Of a DNA stretch of 64,000 nucleotides, positions 3,746 through 62,721 are shown piece by piece. This stretch comes from Mermis nigrescens. Lineage: Eukaryota > Nematoda > Enoplea > Mermithida > Mermithidae. The notes under the pieces were generated by a model that searched no databases, had not been told where the DNA came from, and saw only the letters and a list, made by a program, of their open reading frames with translations. The stretch is taken from the NCBI GenBank assembly GCA_036768485.1, contig JAVLUZ010000264.1, positions 1 to 64,000 on the forward strand, written 5' to 3'. The first letter of the stretch is position 1. Every line of letters begins with the position of its first letter. The translations under genes and the position numbers were made by a program.

Positions 3746-4496
3746 ATCAGCAGGATGGTGTAAACGGCTAAAAATATTACTAAAAATTGCTAAAAAATAG
3801 CATTCTGGGGATCAGCGAGTGTAATTCAAGTCCTCGGGGCAGAGATGTATGTAACGGCTCAAAATTTTGGGAGGTTATTTTTCCCCAAAAATGTAGGGGA
3901 GGTCAAAAATTTTCTGGCTTCTATTAGATATATGTCGGGGGATCCAGTGTCCAAACCCCCACGCCCATGTGAGGTTTAAACTACCCAAGAATCTGACAGA
4001 TCGTCCAGATGACTGTAGACCCCATAAGTCAATTTTTATTACCCTTTTCAGCGATTTTACCTATCACCGAACATTTTTCATATTTTATACTATGCGATTT
4101 AATTTATTCAGCTCGTTTGCTGGGCGTTACGTTGGCTCAATACCCGCCGCTGATCAAGATGGAAGTGAAGCTGAAAATTCAACAGGCTCTTCTTGATGCG
4201 GAAAAGAAAATGGAAGAAATGCGCATGCGGGATGTTGAAAACAACGAAATGCTCACTGACACAGTGATTTGGAATGCATCTGCATACCGTTGCTTATGAT
4301 CCGAACATTTGCAAATGAAAACTTTTGGAAAAATTTGAATAAAATGTTGTTGAGACGATTGCATATCATATTTCCACAGTCAGAATCAGATATGCACGTA
4401 GGAGGCCCGTTAGGGAGGTTGTTGGGCATAATAGGCAAAATCAAGCGCAGAGGCCGCCACAATTGCAAGCATGGGTGTAGGCGAAGGGATATGCAC

Positions 4497-5017
4497 CATA
4501 CCTGGGCGTGAGGGTTTGGGGGTATGCACCATACGTGGGCAGCAAGAAAATTCTGGGGGGTGCAAGATTTTTTGAAGTTCAAAAAATGGCCTTAAAAATG
4601 GTGGTATGACGATAAAAACACCATTTTTCGACGTTTCTCATCAAGCACTATCTGGCATCAAAAAAATTGCAAAAGAACGAAAAAAATTTTCAAAAATTGA
4701 ATGCTGGGGGTATTTTGATTTCTGGGGGGTATTTTGGTTTCTGGGGGGTATTTTGGTTTCTGGGGGTTGCATACCCCCCAAACCCCCCACGCTAAGGTGT
4801 GGTATGCACCCCCAGAGGGCAAAATACCCGACAATACCTCCCCAGAATTTCATTTTTTAAAATGTTTTTGTTTTTTTGGGTTTTTTATGCTAATCGATAG
4901 AGATCGACAAGATACTTTAAAAAATGGTACTTTTTCGCCATTGGACCGTTTTTAAGGCAAAAAATTTGACTTTTAAAAATTTTCGCACCCCCAGAACTTT
5001 GGAGCCGCCCACCCATG
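4497..5017 (-). mobile_element. Middle family A copy of the nest, perfect 8-bp duplication
   Basis: Flanked by ATATGCAC at 4489-4496 and 5018-5025 (8/8). It starts CATACCTGGGCGTGAGG and ends GGAGCCGCCCACCCATG. It is itself split at its own GTATGCAC octamer by the copy at 4530-4801. Confidence 0.8.
4530..4801 (+). mobile_element. Innermost family A copy of the nest, perfect 8-bp duplication
   Basis: Flanked by GTATGCAC at 4522-4529 and 4802-4809 (8/8). It runs from CATACGTGGGCAGCAAG to CGCTAAGGTGTG in the opposite orientation to the two copies around it. An extra internal copy of the TTTCTGGGGGGTATTTTGG unit gives a small tandem repeat (4721-4765). Confidence 0.85.
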
Positions 5018-5321
5018 ATATGCACCCCTCGGAAGGCAAAATACCTACTATTAAAATGATACCCAACATTAACCCCCAGAACTTTGGAGCCGCCCACCTA
5101 TTTTTGCATGTCCGTTGCATCCGAGAGTGAGTGATTCTGTTGGTCTAAACCCCACCATTCCCACAATAAACGCTCCAGAATCTAAACTGATTTCTGGGAG
5201 ATATTTAAATTCGAGTCCGAAATCCCTCCTCCGCCTATTCACAGCGTAAGGCCGAATCCCCCGTTCCTAAAAAGTAATGCTTAGCGCTTAATGCTCCAAG
5301 TTTTAATTCGAAATATGCAAG

Positions 5322-6067
5322 TTATTCTAGACTACAAGCTTTTCGCTGCCGTGGCAGAGAACCATATGACGAAACGAAATAATCCTTGAATACTTGGCGA
5401 ACATTGCTTGAAGCAGAGGTAACACGAGTTTGAGTATCATTTTTACTTGCAGAACTATCTAAGAAACAAGTGTCTGACTGAGTTATTTCGCGCCAGTCGC
5501 CGGCAGTTACACTCCCGTCATCTTCTTCGTAATCTATCAAATTCGCAGTGACATATCTCATTGTCGGCGCATCTTGATGGTCAGTTGCCTTTAAAAATTG
5601 TGCAGAGCTAAAGCGGCTTTCACGATGTTATCGGCAGTTTCAGGCTTCATTACGTTTAATGGCTTCTGGAAAATCCTCCATCTGGCTGCGAGGATGCCGA
5701 ATGCATTCTCAACGCAACGTCGGGCTCTAGATAATCGATAATTGAAAATTATCTTATCTTCATCTAAGCGCCTGCCGGGATATGGCTTCATGACGTTCTC
5801 TGCCATCTGGAAAGCGTCGTCAGCGATAAAGACATATGGACTAACGATATAAGTACCAGGCAACTTTTGAGGTGGTGGTAGAGTAATCCCCTCTGAATAC
5901 AGATCGGCACCGAACGCTGATTTCTTGAATGTTCCTCCGTCACTCTGGCTGCCATAGGCACCGACATCCACAATCCTGAACTTATAGTTTGCATCCACGA
6001 TTGCCATAAGTACTATAGAAAAATATCCTTTATAATTATGGTACAAACTGCCGGACTTCGGTGGCGC
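5322..6067 (-). pseudogene. HARBI1-like transposase exon 3 (second D and E of the DDE triad), frameshifted
   Basis: The acceptor CAG at 6070-6068 opens with APPKSGSLYHNYKGYFSI, a hallmark of Harbinger DDE nucleases. FIADDAFQM supplies the second acidic residue and CVENAFGILAARWRIF the catalytic Glu. The frame stops at ALALHNF (about 5591). The next block (MRYVTANLIDYEEDDG to KACSLE, ending at 5322) is in another frame and matches the usual C-terminal tail of the family, so one T has been lost from the run at 5594-5598. The exon is otherwise open. DDE transposases cut and rejoin the transposon ends. Confidence 0.85.
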
Positions 6068-6149
6068 CTGAACAAAGAAACAGAGTCGCCATTAAAAGGT
6101 GTAAACAACCGCAAACATTAGGGATGTGCCGGGTACCCGGACCCGAAAC

Positions 6150-7317: not shown

Positions 7318-7584
7318 CATACGTGGGCAGCAAGAAAATTCTGGGGGGGGGGGTGCAAGATTTTTTGAAGGTCGAAAAATGGCCTTAAAAATGGTGGTAT
7401 GGCGATAAAAACACCATTTTTCGACGTTTCTCATCAAGCACTATCCATTGGCATCAAAAAATTGCGAAAAAAACGAAAAAAATTTTCAAAAAATTGAATT
7501 CTGGGGGGGGGTATTTTGATTTCTGGGGGGGGGGTATTTTGGTTTCTGGGGGTGCATACCCCCAAACCCCCACGCCCAGGTGTG
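7318..7584 (+). mobile_element. Family A MITE with perfect GTCTAGAC duplication
   Basis: Flanked by GTCTAGAC at 7310-7317 and 7585-7592 (8/8, itself a palindrome). Ends are CATACGTGGGCAGCAAG and CGCCCAGGTGTG. The core AAAATGGTGGTATGGCGATAA and CATCAAGCACTATCCATTGG is typical of family A. Confidence 0.87.
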
Positions 7585-7964: not shown

Positions 7965-8319
7965 CTGTAAGGAATGAACGATTCAACATTTGATGCAACT
8001 TTTAATCTTCACATAAACAAGTTGATAATCTAAAAATTGTAAAATACAATAGAAATATTAAAGTTAAATAGATGTATATTTTTCAAAATCTCCTGTTAAA
8101 AATAACAGAAAAACAGTTGAAAAATAAAAGTTATGAAAAAATAATTGAGCAAATTAATTAATAAATTTATTAAAATTTAATAATCAGAATCATCAATTAT
8201 TGCCTCAGAATTGATAATTTAAAATCGAAAGTAATCAAAATACCCAAGTTTTAGCAAGGAGATAAATTATTTTACAGCAGAGGCCGTATTCATAAATGTA
8301 GTTGTATGCACACAAAACG

Positions 8320-8782
8320 CTACAATAGCGTTACAACTACGTTATTACACAGTTCCTGGTAAATTTGAAGCACTTTTGAAGAAAATTTGAATTTTCATCC
8401 GTTTTTGGCCTTCATTTTGCTTCATTTTCCCAGCAAAATTTTTCATTTTCCCATTCCGGGGGGTCAGGACCAGACATGCACGTGGGGGGTTTAGGGGGGT
8501 CCTGACCCCCAGAATGGGAAAATTGAAAATTTTGTTGGGGAAATGAAGCAAAATGAAGGCCAAAAACGGATGAAAAATTAAAATTTTTTAAAGTGCTTCA
8601 AATTGACCAGAAACTGTGTAATAACGAAGTTTTAACGCTATTTTAGCGTTTATGCACGTTTTTGAACTCATTTTGGCCCAAAAAAGCTCCATTTTTGACT
8701 CCCCCCGAGACCGGCTAACCCCTCAGATCGGCCATGCTGTGCATCTATGGTCAGGACCCCAAACCCCCCACGTGCATGTCTG
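8320..8782 (-). mobile_element. Family B MITE, truncated, interrupted by another B
   Basis: CGTTACAACTACGTTATTAC through CCATTCCGGGGGGTCAGGAC is inverted family B. It resumes after the inserted copy as GTCAGGACCCCAAACC and ends CACGTGCATGTCTG at about 8782, next to GTCTGGAC. The far end is missing. Confidence 0.65.
8471..8749 (+). mobile_element. Family B MITE, complete, inserted in another B (perfect GTCAGGAC duplication)
   Basis: Flanked by GTCAGGAC at 8463-8470 and 8750-8757 (8/8). Runs from CAGACATGCACGTGGGGGG to CGGCCATGCTGTGCATCTATG, 279 bp, and serves as the reference copy for family B. It carries its own internal GGGGGTCCTGACCCCC octamer site near the left end. Confidence 0.9.
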
Positions 8783-13484: not shown

Positions 13485-13974
13485 CATATGTGCATTGCAA
13501 GACTTTTTTGGGCCAAAATGACCTCAAAAACTGGCGTAAGCGTTTAAATAGCGTTAAAACTACGTTATTACATAGTTTTTGGTCAATTTTAAGCACTTCT
13601 GAAGGAAATTTTCGATTTTCATCCGTTTTCGGCCTTCGTTCTGCCTCATGTTCCCCACAAAATTTTCTATTCTTCCATTCTGTGGGGTCTAATCTAAGCC
13701 CCCAACCACATCTGGGCGTGGGGGTGGGGTTTGGGGTATGAAACCCCGAGAAACCAAAATACCCCCAGAATTCTATTTTTGAATTTTTTTTGTTTTTTCG
13801 CAATTTTTGATGCCAATGGATAGTGCTCGATGAGAAACGTCGAAAAATTGTGTTTTCTTCGCCATACCACCATTTTTAAGGCATTTTGTGACCTTTGAAA
13901 AATCTTGCACTCCCCCCCACAATCTTCTTGCTGCCCACGTATGCCCCCAACCCCCCCCCCCTCGTGCATGTCTG
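13485..13974 (-). mobile_element. Family B MITE carrying a nested A (composite), TCCGTCAC/GCCGTCAC duplication
   Basis: Flanked by TCCGTCAC (13477-13484) and GCCGTCAC (13975-13982), 7/8. Starts CATATGTGCATTGCAAG and ends CGTGCATGTCTG. It is split at CCCCCAAC by a family A copy. The same arrangement occurs at 60509-61031. Confidence 0.82.
13707..13943 (-). mobile_element. Family A MITE nested in B, perfect CCCCCAAC duplication
   Basis: CCCCCAAC at 13699-13706 and 13944-13951 (8/8). Ends CACATCTGGGCGTGGGG and TGCTGCCCACGTATG. Confidence 0.88.
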
Positions 13975-14297: not shown

Positions 14298-44916
<30,619 letters not shown>

Positions 44917-47491: not shown

Positions 47492-47640
47492 CATACATTT
47501 AGCGGGGGTGGGTCGTCCCCCATCTCCCCAATCAGAAATTTTGTTGACCCCGCATCCCCATCTAAGGCTTAGCCCATGCGCTGGCACCAATGCGAAGGCA
47601 CATAACTAAGCCTAGGCCTAGGATATTGGTAACAACAACC
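47492..47640. repeat. Family D fragment followed by family L sequence
   Basis: CATACATTTAGCGGGGGTGGG and GGTCGTCCCCCATCTCCCC are the start of inverted D; from 47570 GGCTTAGCCCATGCGCTGGC and CTAAGCCTAGGCCTAGGA match the sequence at 38555-38625. Confidence 0.5.
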
Positions 47641-49436: not shown

Positions 49437-49910
49437 TTAACAACATTTTTTTGTTGGCGAAAATTTGGAAAATGGCACATCTAAAAAGTCTAAACCATAA
49501 CGAACCACAAGGATAGCTTCAACAGTATTGCGCAAGAGTCGATTATGCAAGTTATTTTTTACAATATTCATTATCGAAAAGACGCGTTCAACCGAAGCAT
49601 TCGAAAATGGCAAACAGAATAAAGCTAGAGCGAAATTCGCAACATTTTCAAAACGGCAGTCTCCAGCTGCGTCTTTACTATCTTTTACAGCTAACCAAAA
49701 TTGCACAGAATCAATATGACGACCTGGATTTTCATTACAGAACGTTAACGCACGAAATTCTTCTTCGGTTGCTGACGGATCAGGTGCTAGCGATGGGAAC
49801 TGCATTAACAAAGCACCAATGTTAGATGCCTTTTTCTTCAATATGACATCTTGGCTTAGCGATTCTAACAGACACAGCGAGTTCAGTGTATCAGGAAGCC
49901 TAGCTCTGAC
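49437..49910 (-). CDS. hAT transposase exon 10: C-terminal dimerisation domain
   Basis: Acceptor TTGTTTTAG; VRARLPDTLNSLCLLESLSQ, then FENVANFALALFCLPFSNAS, VERVFSIMNIVKNNLHNRLL and EAILVVRYGLDFLD, then stop. LPxSNASVERVFS is the hallmark of the hAT C-terminal domain. Fully open. Confidence 0.9.
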   Translation of the reverse strand, partial: VRARLPDTLNSLCLLESLSQDVILKKKASNIGALLMQFPSLAPDPSATEEEFRALTFCNENPGRHIDSVQFWLAVKDSKDAAGDCRFENVANFALALFCLPFSNASVERVFSIMNIVKNNLHNRLLRNTVEAILVVRYGLDFLDVPFSKFSPTKKCC

Positions 49911-60508: not shown

Positions 60509-61031
60509 CATAGGTGCACAGCATTGCTGATCTGAAGATCAAGAATTGAGCTTTCTAAAAAAAGTGGTGTAAGCGCTAGAATGGCGTTAAAAACTGCGTT
60601 ATTACACCGTTTCTAGTAAATTTACGGTATTTTTGGAGAGAATATTCAATTTTCATCCATTTTTCACCTGCATTTTGCCTCATTTTCCCGAAAAAATTTT
60701 ACATTTTTCCATTTTAGGGGTCTGTAGAGACCCCCAACCACACATGGGCGTGGGGGGTTTGGGGGTATGCACTCCCCCAAAGTTGAAATACCCCCCAGAA
60801 ATCAAAATACCCCCCCTAGAATTCAAATTTTGAATTTTTTTGCTTTTCTAGCGATTTTTTGATGCCATTGGATAGTGCTCAATGAGAAACGTCGAAAAAT
60901 TGTGTTTTTCGCCATACAACCACTTTTAAGACTATTTTTTGACCCTTGAAAATTTTTTCACCCCCCCCCCCTTAGAATTTTGGTGCTGCCCACCTATGCC
61001 CCCAACCCCCCCATCCTCACGTGCATGTCTG
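60509..61031 (-). mobile_element. Family B MITE carrying a nested A (composite), perfect GTCTGGAC duplication
   Basis: GTCTGGAC at 60501-60508 and 61032-61039 (8/8). Starts CATAGGTGCACAGCATTGC, ends CACGTGCATGTCTG. Split at CCCCCAAC by an A copy, exactly as at 13485-13974. Confidence 0.88.
60739..60998 (-). mobile_element. Family A MITE nested in B, perfect CCCCCAAC duplication
   Basis: CCCCCAAC at 60731-60738 and 60999-61006 (8/8). Starts CACACATGGGCGTGGGG, ends GTGCTGCCCACCTATG. Confidence 0.9.
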
Positions 61032-61209: not shown

Positions 61210-62001
61210 CATAGGTGTGCAACACCAAAATCCTGAAGGGTGCAAGATTTTTCAAAAGTCAAAAAATGGTTTTAGAAATGGTGGTATGGCGAAAAAGCAT
61301 CATTTTTGTACAGCATGGGAATTCTAGGGGCTCAGTAACAAAAATTTTTAAAAAGTGCCTTTCTGGGCTAAAAACCGGAGGTTACACGTCAAACACACTG
61401 TTTTTTGACGTTGCAGACAATGCTCGTTCTTTCAAGAGCATAAAAACGTTAAAAAATTCCAAAAATTGAGTAAATTGAACAAAGTATAGTCAAAAAATAA
61501 TTATATGGCGCGGGAATTCTGGGGGCTAAGTAACAATAATTTTTAAAAAGTGCCTTTTGGGCTAAAAACCGGCACACTGTTTTTTGACGTTGCAGACAAT
61601 GCTCGTTCTTTCAAGAGCATAAAAACGTTAAAAAATTTCAAAAAATTCAAAAAAATTGAGTAAATTGAACAAAATATAGTCAAAAAATAAGTATATGGCG
61701 CGAAGCAACAAAAATTTGAGATTTTTAAGCCAAAAATGAGCTACAAACGCTCAAAAAGATACACTTTTTACAACTTTTACAAAAAAATCGACGATTCTGG
61801 GGGAAGAGGTCGCAGCTATTTTGCGGGGGTCAGTTGTCATTTAGGGGAAGGTCAACCGCCCCATCAAATGCCCCCAAGAACACGCCTGGTACTATCCATT
61901 GGCATCAAGAAATCGCGGAAAAATTTTTCAAAAATTGAATTCTGGGGGTATTCGGCCTTCTGGTGGGTGCATACCCCCAGAACCTTCCATGTCCACGTGT
62001 G
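61210..62001 (+). mobile_element. Family A MITE nested in B and enclosing C
   Basis: Flanks TGCCTGAC (61202-61209) and GTCCTGAC (62002-62009), 6/8. Left piece CATAGGTGTGCAACACC to GCATCATTTTTG; right piece ACTATCCATTGGCATC to CATGTCCACGTGTG. Confidence 0.72.
61306..61885 (+). mobile_element. Family C MITE with internal tandem duplication, nested in A
   Basis: Starts at CAGCATGGGAATTCTAGG (outer tip missing). The block GGAATTCTrGGGGCT to TATGGCGCG occurs twice head to tail (61318-61508 and 61509-61700). Hairpin decayed to GGCGCGAAGCAAC. Right side CAAATGCCCCCAAGAACACG. Confidence 0.68.
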
Positions 62002-62280
62002 GTCCTGACCCCCCAGAATGGAAAAATGGGAAATTTTAGGGTAGAAACAAGGTAAAATGAGTGCTAAAAATGAATGAAAATGAAAATTTTCCTCAAAAGT
62101 GTCTAAATTGATCAGAAATTGTGTAATAAAGCAGTTTTAAAACTAATTCGGCGCTTATATTAGTTTTTGAGCTCATTTAGGCCCAAAAAAGCTTAATGCT
62201 TGACCCTCCCTCGAGACCGGCTGACCCCTCCCTGATTTGGCCATGCTGTACATCTAAGGTCTAACTGGACTAGTCATCAT

Positions 62281-62721
62281 CATAGATGCACAGCATGGCC
62301 GGTCGGTGGGGGGTCAGCCGGTCTAGCGGGGTCAAGAATTGAGCTTCCTTGAGCCAAAATGACCCCAAAAACTAATATAAGCGCAAAAATAGCGTTAAAA
62401 CTACGTTATTACACAGTTTCTGATAAATTCGAAACACTGTCGAACAAAATTTTTAATTTTCATGTTTTTTGCCTTCATTTTGTCCCGTTTTCCCAACAGA
62501 AAACTCCATTGTTCCATTCTGGTGGGGGAGGTCAGGACCATACGTGGGCGGCAAGAAATTCCTGGGGGTCTGAATAGGTTAAATCGCCAAAAATGTTACT
62601 AAAAGTAGAATTCTGAGGGAATCTACAGTAATCTGCGTGTGGTTTCAACTCCTGGAGGGTACAACCCACCACGCCCATGTGTGGTCAGGAACCTCCAAAC
62701 CCTCCCCCACGTGCATGTCTG
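62281..62721 (-). mobile_element. Family B MITE interrupted by A-prime, GTCATCAT/GTTATCAG duplication (6/8)
   Basis: Starts CATAGATGCACAGCATGGCC and ends CACGTGCATGTCTG. Split at its internal GTCAGGAC octamer by the 145-bp A-prime element. Confidence 0.78.
62539..62683 (+). mobile_element. Family A-prime short MITE nested in B, GTCAGGAC/GTCAGGAA duplication
   Basis: Octamers 62531-62538 and 62684-62691 agree at 7/8. Family A tips (CATACGTGGGCGGC, CACGCCCATGTGTG) around an interior with TAAATCGCCAAAAATG and CTACAGTAATCTGCG, as at 27261-27413. Confidence 0.8.

What the first reader, a model, noticed from the sequence alone, without database searches (positions are those of the whole stretch)
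4470..5102. Three-deep nest of one MITE family, each layer using the same internal octamer
Family A copy 4530-4801 sits in 4497-5017, which sits in 4470-5102. Both inner insertions have perfect 8-bp duplications (GTATGCAC, ATATGCAC). Each hit the equivalent octamer of its host, inside GGGGGTATGCACCCCC. Repeated use of one position in its own relatives implies strong target preference: G run, octamer, C run.
Basis: seen in the sequence. Interest (0 to 1): 0.82.

Follow-up and report, generated by a model that had tools for sequence, protein, structure and literature searches.

The report
Jumping DNA carrying its own landing-site

Summary
The nest is real. The inner copy (4530-4801), the middle copy (4497-5017) and their perfect 8-bp duplications are as described; the outer copy (4470-5102) has a decayed 6-of-8 duplication. 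Identity to consensus falls 94.0, 82.0, 75.3% from inside to outside, as successive insertion predicts. In the 524-Mb genome 704 junctions sit at this octamer, against 18 spread over 31 control positions; 50 of 100 listed are in each orientation, so they are many events.

The interpretation needs three changes. (1) The octamer is not the specificity: the family targets a hAT/P-like palindromic frame, about G.GTnnnnAC.C, core leaning to CYRG. The consensus holds one full match, and that octamer makes up 53% of GGGTnnnnACCC sites in the genome. It is hit about as often per site as others (roughly 2-3%), so no homing to relatives is needed. (2) A second sharp position, CATACCAC (510 matches; 95 of 100 listed at the exact site), is not explained by the frame. 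(3) A related family, B, nests in its own octamer (8471-8749; 46 such junctions), and A inserts into B's. Superfamily: hAT-like; no transposase was linked.

The parts
4470..5102 (-). Outer family A copy, interrupted at its octamer; flanks ATTGCAAG / TTTGCATG (6 of 8 alike)
   Evidence: 75.3% identity to consensus over 85 aligned columns
4489..4496 (.). 8-bp target duplication ATATGCAC, left of middle copy
4497..5017 (-). Middle family A copy, inserted in the outer copy's octamer and itself interrupted at its octamer
   Evidence: 82.0% identity to consensus
4522..4529 (.). 8-bp target duplication GTATGCAC, left of inner copy
4530..4801 (+). Inner, complete family A copy (272 bp), ends CATACGTGGGC / CACACCTTAGC
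   Evidence: 94.0% identity to consensus
4802..4809 (.). 8-bp target duplication GTATGCAC, right of inner copy
5018..5025 (.). 8-bp target duplication ATATGCAC, right of middle copy
8314..8782 (-). Family B host copy (8314-8470 and tail 8758-8782), interrupted at its own octamer GGGGG-GTCAGGAC-CCC
8463..8470 (.). Target duplication GTCAGGAC, left (second copy at 8750-8757)
8471..8749 (+). Family B copy (279 bp) nested in family B; carries its own octamer GTCCTGAC at 8499-8506
31919..32127 (+). Family A copy after GTCTAGAC in an older A-like copy (31691 onward), by inference at that copy's octamer position; no matching right duplication
61210..62001 (+). A-related copy (foreign stretch inside) whose right side abuts a family B octamer (GTCCTGAC at 62002-62009, then CCCCCAGAATGG); left flank TGCCTGAC, 6 of 8 alike
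62539..62683 (+). Short A-like copy with duplication GTCAGGAC / GTCAGGAA, abutting a family B octamer
7318..7584 (+). Complete family A copy, perfect duplication GTCTAGAC, intact octamer; a reference copy for the family

Best explanation
Family A is a non-autonomous, hAT-like MITE (consensus 254 bp, imperfect 11-bp inverted ends CAYANNTGGGC, 8-bp duplications), moved by a transposase that was not found here. The transposase prefers a palindromic target frame, about G.GTnnnnAC.C with a core leaning to CYRG. About 26-34 bp inside one end the element carries GGGGGTGCATACCCCC, a full match to that frame. With tens of thousands of copies the family itself supplies about half of the GGGTnnnnACCC sites, so new copies land there at the ordinary per-site rate. 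Each insertion uses up one site but brings in a fresh one, so nests can grow a further layer. The three-deep nest is the product of two such events at different times. Shown: the nest, the duplications, the age order, the genome-wide concentration, the frame, the supply of sites. Inferred: the identity of the transposase and that it moved all three layers.
For: Junctions and age order. 704 octamer junctions genome-wide, reversed-pattern control 0, against 18 within 31 positions after CGACGTTTCTC, an anchor found 12 times in the 264-kb sample, as often as GGGGGTATGCACCCC. Duplication length: 25 of 48 TIR-to-TIR pairs have an exact 8-bp duplication, none an exact one of any other length from 5 to 12. 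Frame at those 25 sites: T 0.72 at position 2, A 0.76 at position 7 as read; on both strands G 0.68 two before, C 0.68 two after. In 18 of them outside A the six-position score averages 3.78 against 1.37 in random sequence; A's octamer is the only 6/6 position of the consensus, with one 5/6. GGGTNNNNAC directly before a TIR: 6,589, reversed-pattern control 50, about 5.6% of the roughly 117,000 TIR ends estimated from 59 in the sample, against 120 intact strand-sites in 528,000 strand positions, about 0.02%. GGGTATGCACCC 25,055 (control 682) of 47,503 GGGTNNNNACCC (control 7,092). Per-site rates: octamer about 2.0%, others about 3.1%. Independent events: 50 junctions with end 1 and 50 with end 2 in 100 listed, seven end subtypes. 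Strict triple-nest pattern: 4 genome-wide, near the roughly 5 that I expect if layers are independent.
Against: The second hot position, CATACCAC (510 matches, 95 of 100 listed at the exact site), scores only 3 of 6 on the frame by my count, so the frame does not account for all self-insertions. Several 'other' sites are octamers of related families, so 'others' are not all unique sequence. The frame was chosen on sites that include the 18. Rate denominators come from a 264-kb sample (35 and 85 strand-sites), and the octamer's second side was taken as equal to 704, not counted. A third region also has peaks (653 matches), which I only infer to be octamer sites. No transposase was linked.
Confidence: 0.82

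Rival explanations
1. Self-homing: transposase bound to the G-rich subterminal repeats (TTCTGGGGG and its inverse) of a resident copy draws the transposition complex to that copy's octamer, so relatives are preferred beyond what the target sequence predicts.
For: A has several TTCTGGGGG repeats and the octamer lies between two inverted G-runs (consensus). The hAT transposase Hermes contacts its transposon end through multiple BED domains (PMC10368747, start of abstract only). The second hot position lacks the frame.
Against: Per-site rate at A's octamer (about 2.0%) is not above that at other GGGTnnnnAC sites (about 3.1%). The strict triple-nest count (4) shows no excess over independence. But the 'others' include octamers of relatives, which would share such homing.
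Confidence: 0.1
2. Structure rather than sequence: the G-run/C-run palindrome extrudes or bends, and the transposase is drawn to that shape; the octamer letters are incidental.
For: Frames with different cores are used (GTCTAGAC, GTCCTGAC, GTATGCAC), and the reported 16-mer is an imperfect palindrome. No folding was computed.
Against: The 18 sites outside A seldom have long G and C runs but keep T and A at positions 2 and 7. CATACCAC is not a palindrome yet is hot.
Confidence: 0.12
3. One old nested composite was copied around, so the 704 junctions are descendants of a few events, not repeated targeting.
For: Composites with intact outer ends could move as units; some listed places look like duplicated segments (C51:11520329 and C51:16398196, each 1,447 bases from a similar hAT fragment).
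Against: 50:50 orientation and seven end subtypes in 100 listed junctions, which show at least seven events; layers of different age in the window.
Confidence: 0.06
4. Assembly or recombination artefact (collapsed tandem copies) rather than insertion.
For: The family is very abundant, and G/C runs are hard to assemble (recalled).
Against: Flush perfect duplications at inverted ends, an age gradient, and hundreds of examples.
Confidence: 0.02

Closest known systems
Nested plant MITEs (Jiang and Wessler 2001; known here only as cited in PMC3695323 and PMC10664404)
   Same: MITEs inserted in members of the same family; PMC10664404 quotes 11% of rice MITEs in multimers (passages)
   Different: Here the hot position is a full copy of the family's own target frame, carried near one end and shared in frame by a related family. 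I could not read the 2001 paper, so I cannot say what positions it reports.
hobo and P element target motifs in Drosophila (PMC3276498, passages)
   Same: 8-bp duplications and palindromic target motifs GTNCGNAC and GTCCGGAC, extending beyond the duplication; the core seen here, GTC[CT][GA]GAC, is nearly the same
   Different: The elements' ends differ (by recall), and here the target frame is carried inside the element
P-MITEs of Anopheles gambiae (PMC1562414, passages)
   Same: MITEs with 8-bp perfect duplications, derived from a transposon family with that duplication length
   Different: P ends there are 27-31 bp; family A has about 11 bp
Mar, a hAT MITE of Drosophila willistoni (PMC3517528, passages)
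   Same: hAT-derived MITE, 11-bp inverted ends, 8-bp duplications
   Different: Mar duplications are nnnTAnnn (Buster type); family A is nTnnnnAn
hAT-derived tandem and nested MITEs at cod inversion breakpoints (PMC12368964, passages)
   Same: hAT-derived MITEs in nested, tandem arrangement
   Different: The words 'target site' and 'TSD' do not occur in its main text; there the interest is in inversions

Membership tests
MITE | Short (under about 600 bp), non-coding, inverted ends, high copy number | tested here: met
   Consensus 254 bp with inverted ends; 87 hits, 29 full length, in 264 kb. Lack of coding is inferred from length.
hAT superfamily | 8-bp target duplication | tested here: met
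   25 of 48 end-to-end pairs have an exact 8-bp duplication; none has an exact one of 5-7 or 9-12 bp
hAT superfamily | Duplication consensus nTnnnnAn (hobo, as listed in PMC3276498; Ac by recall) | tested here: met
   T 0.72 at position 2, A 0.76 at position 7, 25 sites; compared with a table passage of PMC3276498
hAT superfamily | Short inverted ends, 5-27 bp (PMC3517528, passage) | tested here: met
   About 11 bp, CAYANNTGGGC
hAT superfamily | End motif beginning YARNG (recalled) | tested here: not met
   Third base of the end is T or C; the motif is recalled, from no call
hAT superfamily | Moved by a hAT transposase whose gene has the same ends | tested here: inconclusive
   hAT domains abound (150 matches, 150 scored of 3,147 candidates), but L051 and L052 show no gene bounded by these ends; the others could not be fetched
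P superfamily | 8-bp duplication with GTCCGGAC-like target | tested here: met
P superfamily | Inverted ends of 27-31 bp (PMC1562414, passage) | tested here: not met
   About 11 bp
P superfamily | P transposase in the genome | tested here: inconclusive
   PF12017: 0 matches, but the control genomes also gave 0

The most novel reading that the evidence does not exclude
A group of related MITE families keeps, near one end, a mimic of its own transposase's target (G-run, GTnnnnAC, C-run). The frame is held while the four core bases change between families (A ATGC; B CTAG or CCTG; perhaps more), because the mimic does something: either it is a transposase-docking palindrome needed for mobility, or it gives newcomers a harmless landing site, so that the group builds its own safe haven.
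Probability: 0.2. Interest if true: 0.7.

Novelty: new variant of a known kind. Interest (0 to 1): 0.48.

Why it matters
Nested MITEs and palindromic hAT/P target motifs are known separately. Here a MITE holds a full match to its own target frame and so supplies about half of the GGGTnnnnACCC sites of its genome. That gives a simple, countable reason why some MITEs nest in themselves, and it makes the safe-haven idea testable: with hundreds of nests one can ask whether self-insertion limits spread or damage. Related families with the same frame and different cores offer a natural comparison of what the transposase needs.

Tried and rejected
Rejected: that the octamer letters are the specificity; that nests arise by copying one composite; that deep nests are in excess (4 found, about 5 expected by rough arithmetic: 704 insertions, half with the end-2 side facing a GTGCATAC reading, 2.7% hit again, half of those end-2 facing; the two patterns differ somewhat in flank strictness); that the hAT fragment next to two octamer junctions on C51 belongs to family A (a 94-aa open stretch, no shared ends around it); that the 580-aa hAT reading frame L052 is the partner (my search for matching ends with a duplication found none; the locus has masked stretches). 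A search for long elements (600-8,000 bp) with A-like ends in the sample gave one 1,274-bp pair with one mismatch in its duplication, not examined further. PF12017 was uninformative. Sequence words of the ends in papers: 34 papers, 10 listed, none of those 10 on transposons by title; the other 24 were not seen, so I make no claim that the family is undescribed. The stretch, meant as a control, itself has peaks (653 matches; gaps 7-9 in 65 and 26-27 in 15 of 100 listed), so it is not a cold control.

Left unexplained: the second hot position CATACCAC; why two A copies share the duplication GTTGGGGG (13707-13943, 60739-60998); the host species.

Full report
What was checked. The nest is as described: duplications at 4489-4496/5018-5025 (ATATGCAC) and 4522-4529/4802-4809 (GTATGCAC), inner copy 4530-4801, middle 4497-5017, outer 4470-5102 with a 6-of-8 duplication. 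Identity to the consensus is 94.0% (235 of 250 columns), 82.0% (196 of 239) and 75.3% (64 of 85) from inside to outside; the 29 full-length copies in 264 kb range from 81.7 to 96.8%, median 91.6%.

The family. A 254-position consensus was built from full-length hits in the window, a 200-kb stretch of C11 and 30 loci of 2-3 kb. Ends are CATANNTGGGC and CACANNTGGGC. The 264-kb sample (window plus C11 stretch) holds 87 hits, 29 of them full length, which scales to about 58,000 full-length copies in the genome (my arithmetic). The 30 loci were chosen by carrying GGGGGTATGCACCCC, so they are biased towards intact octamers; the 264-kb sample is not, except that the window is the one with the finding.

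Target frame. End-to-end pairs 100-600 bp apart number 48; 25 have an exact 8-bp duplication and none an exact one of another length from 5 to 12. At those 25 sites, as read, position 2 is T in 0.72 and position 7 is A in 0.76; on both strands the base two before the duplication is G in 0.68 and two after is C in 0.68. Leaving out six sites flagged by nhmmer as lying in A, and one repeat of an octamer, 18 remain. On six positions (G two before, G1, T2, A7, C8, C two after) they average 3.78 against 1.37 for random positions of the sample; 11 of 18 score 4 or more against 2.4%, and 5 of 18 score 5 or more against 0.27%; none scores 6. The frame was chosen, so this is not an independent test. 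Genome-wide, GGGTNNNNAC directly before a TIR occurs 6,589 times, reversed-pattern control 50. I estimate about 117,000 TIR ends from 59 in the sample, hence about 5.6%, against 120 intact strand-sites in 528,000 strand positions, about 0.02%. Of the 63 rows that showed letters, 13 were A's octamer; the other 50 lean to C at position 3 (0.54), C or T at 4 (0.74), A or G at 5 (0.72), G at 6 (0.62), with GTCCGGAC the commonest (6). Some of these rows are the two sides of one insertion, so they are not all independent. The core is close to the motifs of hobo (GTNCGNAC) and the P element (GTCCGGAC) in PMC3276498 (passages only).

Where A lands in A. At the octamer: 704 junctions of the exact form GGGTATGCAC + CAYANNTGGGC, reversed-pattern control 0. 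After CGACGTTTCTC, 18 in 31 positions; that anchor occurs 12 times in the sample, as does GGGGGTATGCACCCC. Per position this is a contrast of about a thousand. In the 100 listed octamer junctions the inserted copy faces with end 1 in 50 and end 2 in 50, with seven end subtypes. A second sharp position exists: GCCATACCAC followed within 30 bases by a TIR, 510 matches, 95 of 100 listed with no gap, that is duplication CATACCAC, which on the other strand is consensus 72-79. Sample examples with duplications are C11 stretch 164505-164861 (perfect) and L023 228-460 (one mismatch). It meets only 3 of 6 positions of the frame by my count and stays unexplained. In a third stretch, after AATTCTGGGGG, 653 matches peak at gaps 7-9 (65 of 100 listed) and 26-27 (15 of 100); one gap-7 and one gap-25 place are also in the listing, so I read these peaks as octamer sites in length variants, an inference. 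No stretch other than these was tested, so this is not a full profile.

Supply, not homing. GGGTNNNNACCC occurs at 47,503 places (reversed control 7,092) and GGGTATGCACCC at 25,055 (control 682), so A's octamer is 53% of these 12-mers. Taking 1,408 octamer ends (twice 704; the other side was not counted) and 5,181 other ends, with 35 and 85 intact strand-sites in the sample, rates are about 2.0% and 3.1%. With the full count, 704 of 25,759 occupied plus intact sites is 2.7%. The octamer is thus not used more than its frame allows, and its core is a poor one. The strict triple pattern (end-2 tails stacked) has 4 places, near the 5 I expect if layers are independent; the window's own nest does not fit that strict pattern, because end 1 faces. 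Another stacked nest lies in L030 541-832.

Other families. Window 8471-8749 is a 279-bp element of a second family (B) with perfect duplications GTCAGGAC, inside another B copy at B's own octamer, GGGGGTCAGGACCC. The exact junction GGGTCAGGAC + CANANATGCAC occurs 46 times genome-wide, this one included. B's end 2, CAGACATGCACGTGGGGGGTTTAGGGGG-GTCCTGAC-CCCCAGAATGG, and A's, CACACCTGGGCGTGGGGGTTTGGGGG-GTATGCAC-CCCCAGAAACC, are alike in the G-runs and CCCCAGAA; 7 of 11 terminal bases and 0 of 4 core bases agree. Other B copies have GTCTAGAC there. In the 264-kb sample I count by eye five of 19 readable B end-2 sites interrupted at the octamer (two weak hits, C11 139444 and 37716, left out): three by A-type copies (C11 25304, window 62002 and 62531) and two by B (window 8463, perfect duplication; C11 61966, two mismatches in the duplication). 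GTCTAGAC, one of the three commonest octamers before a TIR (3 of 133 distinct ends, as are GTATGCAC and CATACCAC), is thus partly B's octamer. Further palindromes GGGTnnnnACCC with other cores occur at window 2249, 20895, 43102, 46470 and C11 16409, 161598, 180239; whether these lie near ends of mobile families was not settled.

Superfamily and partner. 8-bp duplications, nTnnnnAn and short ends fit hAT; the P superfamily shares the target but has 27-31-bp ends in Anopheles (PMC1562414, passages). The end does not fit the YARNG motif that I recall for hAT. hAT domains are many, but the two fetched places show none bounded by A's ends. The window's own hAT piece (49437-49910) was not linked to A.

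Literature. Nested MITEs are known (Jiang and Wessler 2001, cited in passages of PMC3695323 and PMC10664404; the paper itself is not held). Palindromic target motifs are known, and hAT MITEs in nests are described in cod (PMC12368964, passages). In eight answered paper searches I saw, in the rows listed (titles and starts of abstracts), no report of a MITE that carries its own target frame near an end. I read passages of eight papers and none in full.

Verdict. A true and well-seen observation, explained by target preference plus supply. The extra interest lies in the carried target frame shared by related families, and in the second hot position.

Noticed in passing
L023 228-460; C11:464505-464861 (in L047): Second sharp self-insertion position of family A, duplication CATACCAC (510 matches genome-wide, 95 of 100 listed at the exact site), not predicted by the target frame.
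   Followed up: partly
8314-8782: Family B nested in family B at its own octamer; the host's end at 8782 abuts GTCTGGAC CCCCCC, which looks like yet another such site.
   Followed up: partly
49437-49910 (-): hAT C-terminal dimerisation domain (PF05699, E 4.1e-08) in an open stretch of 157 aa.
   Followed up: no
5591-6091 (-): DDE_Tnp_4 endonuclease domain (PF13359, E 1.4e-30), Harbinger-like by recall.
   Followed up: no
C11:462556-475554 (in L047-L048): Dense cluster of family A copies, several back to back, joined at TATGCA-type sites.
   Followed up: partly
G000:C7:339-4318: GGGTNNNNACCC recurs about every 181 bases or a multiple of it, which suggests a tandem array.
   Followed up: no
16066-16209: Perfect 72-base inverted repeat with no spacer.
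   Followed up: no
61394-61465 and 61573-61644: Two stretches 99% alike, 179 bases apart, inside 61210-62001, an apparent recent local duplication.
   Followed up: no
13707-13943 and 60739-60998: Two A copies share the duplication GTTGGGGG, both beside a family B end: a G-run next to the octamer is also used.
   Followed up: no
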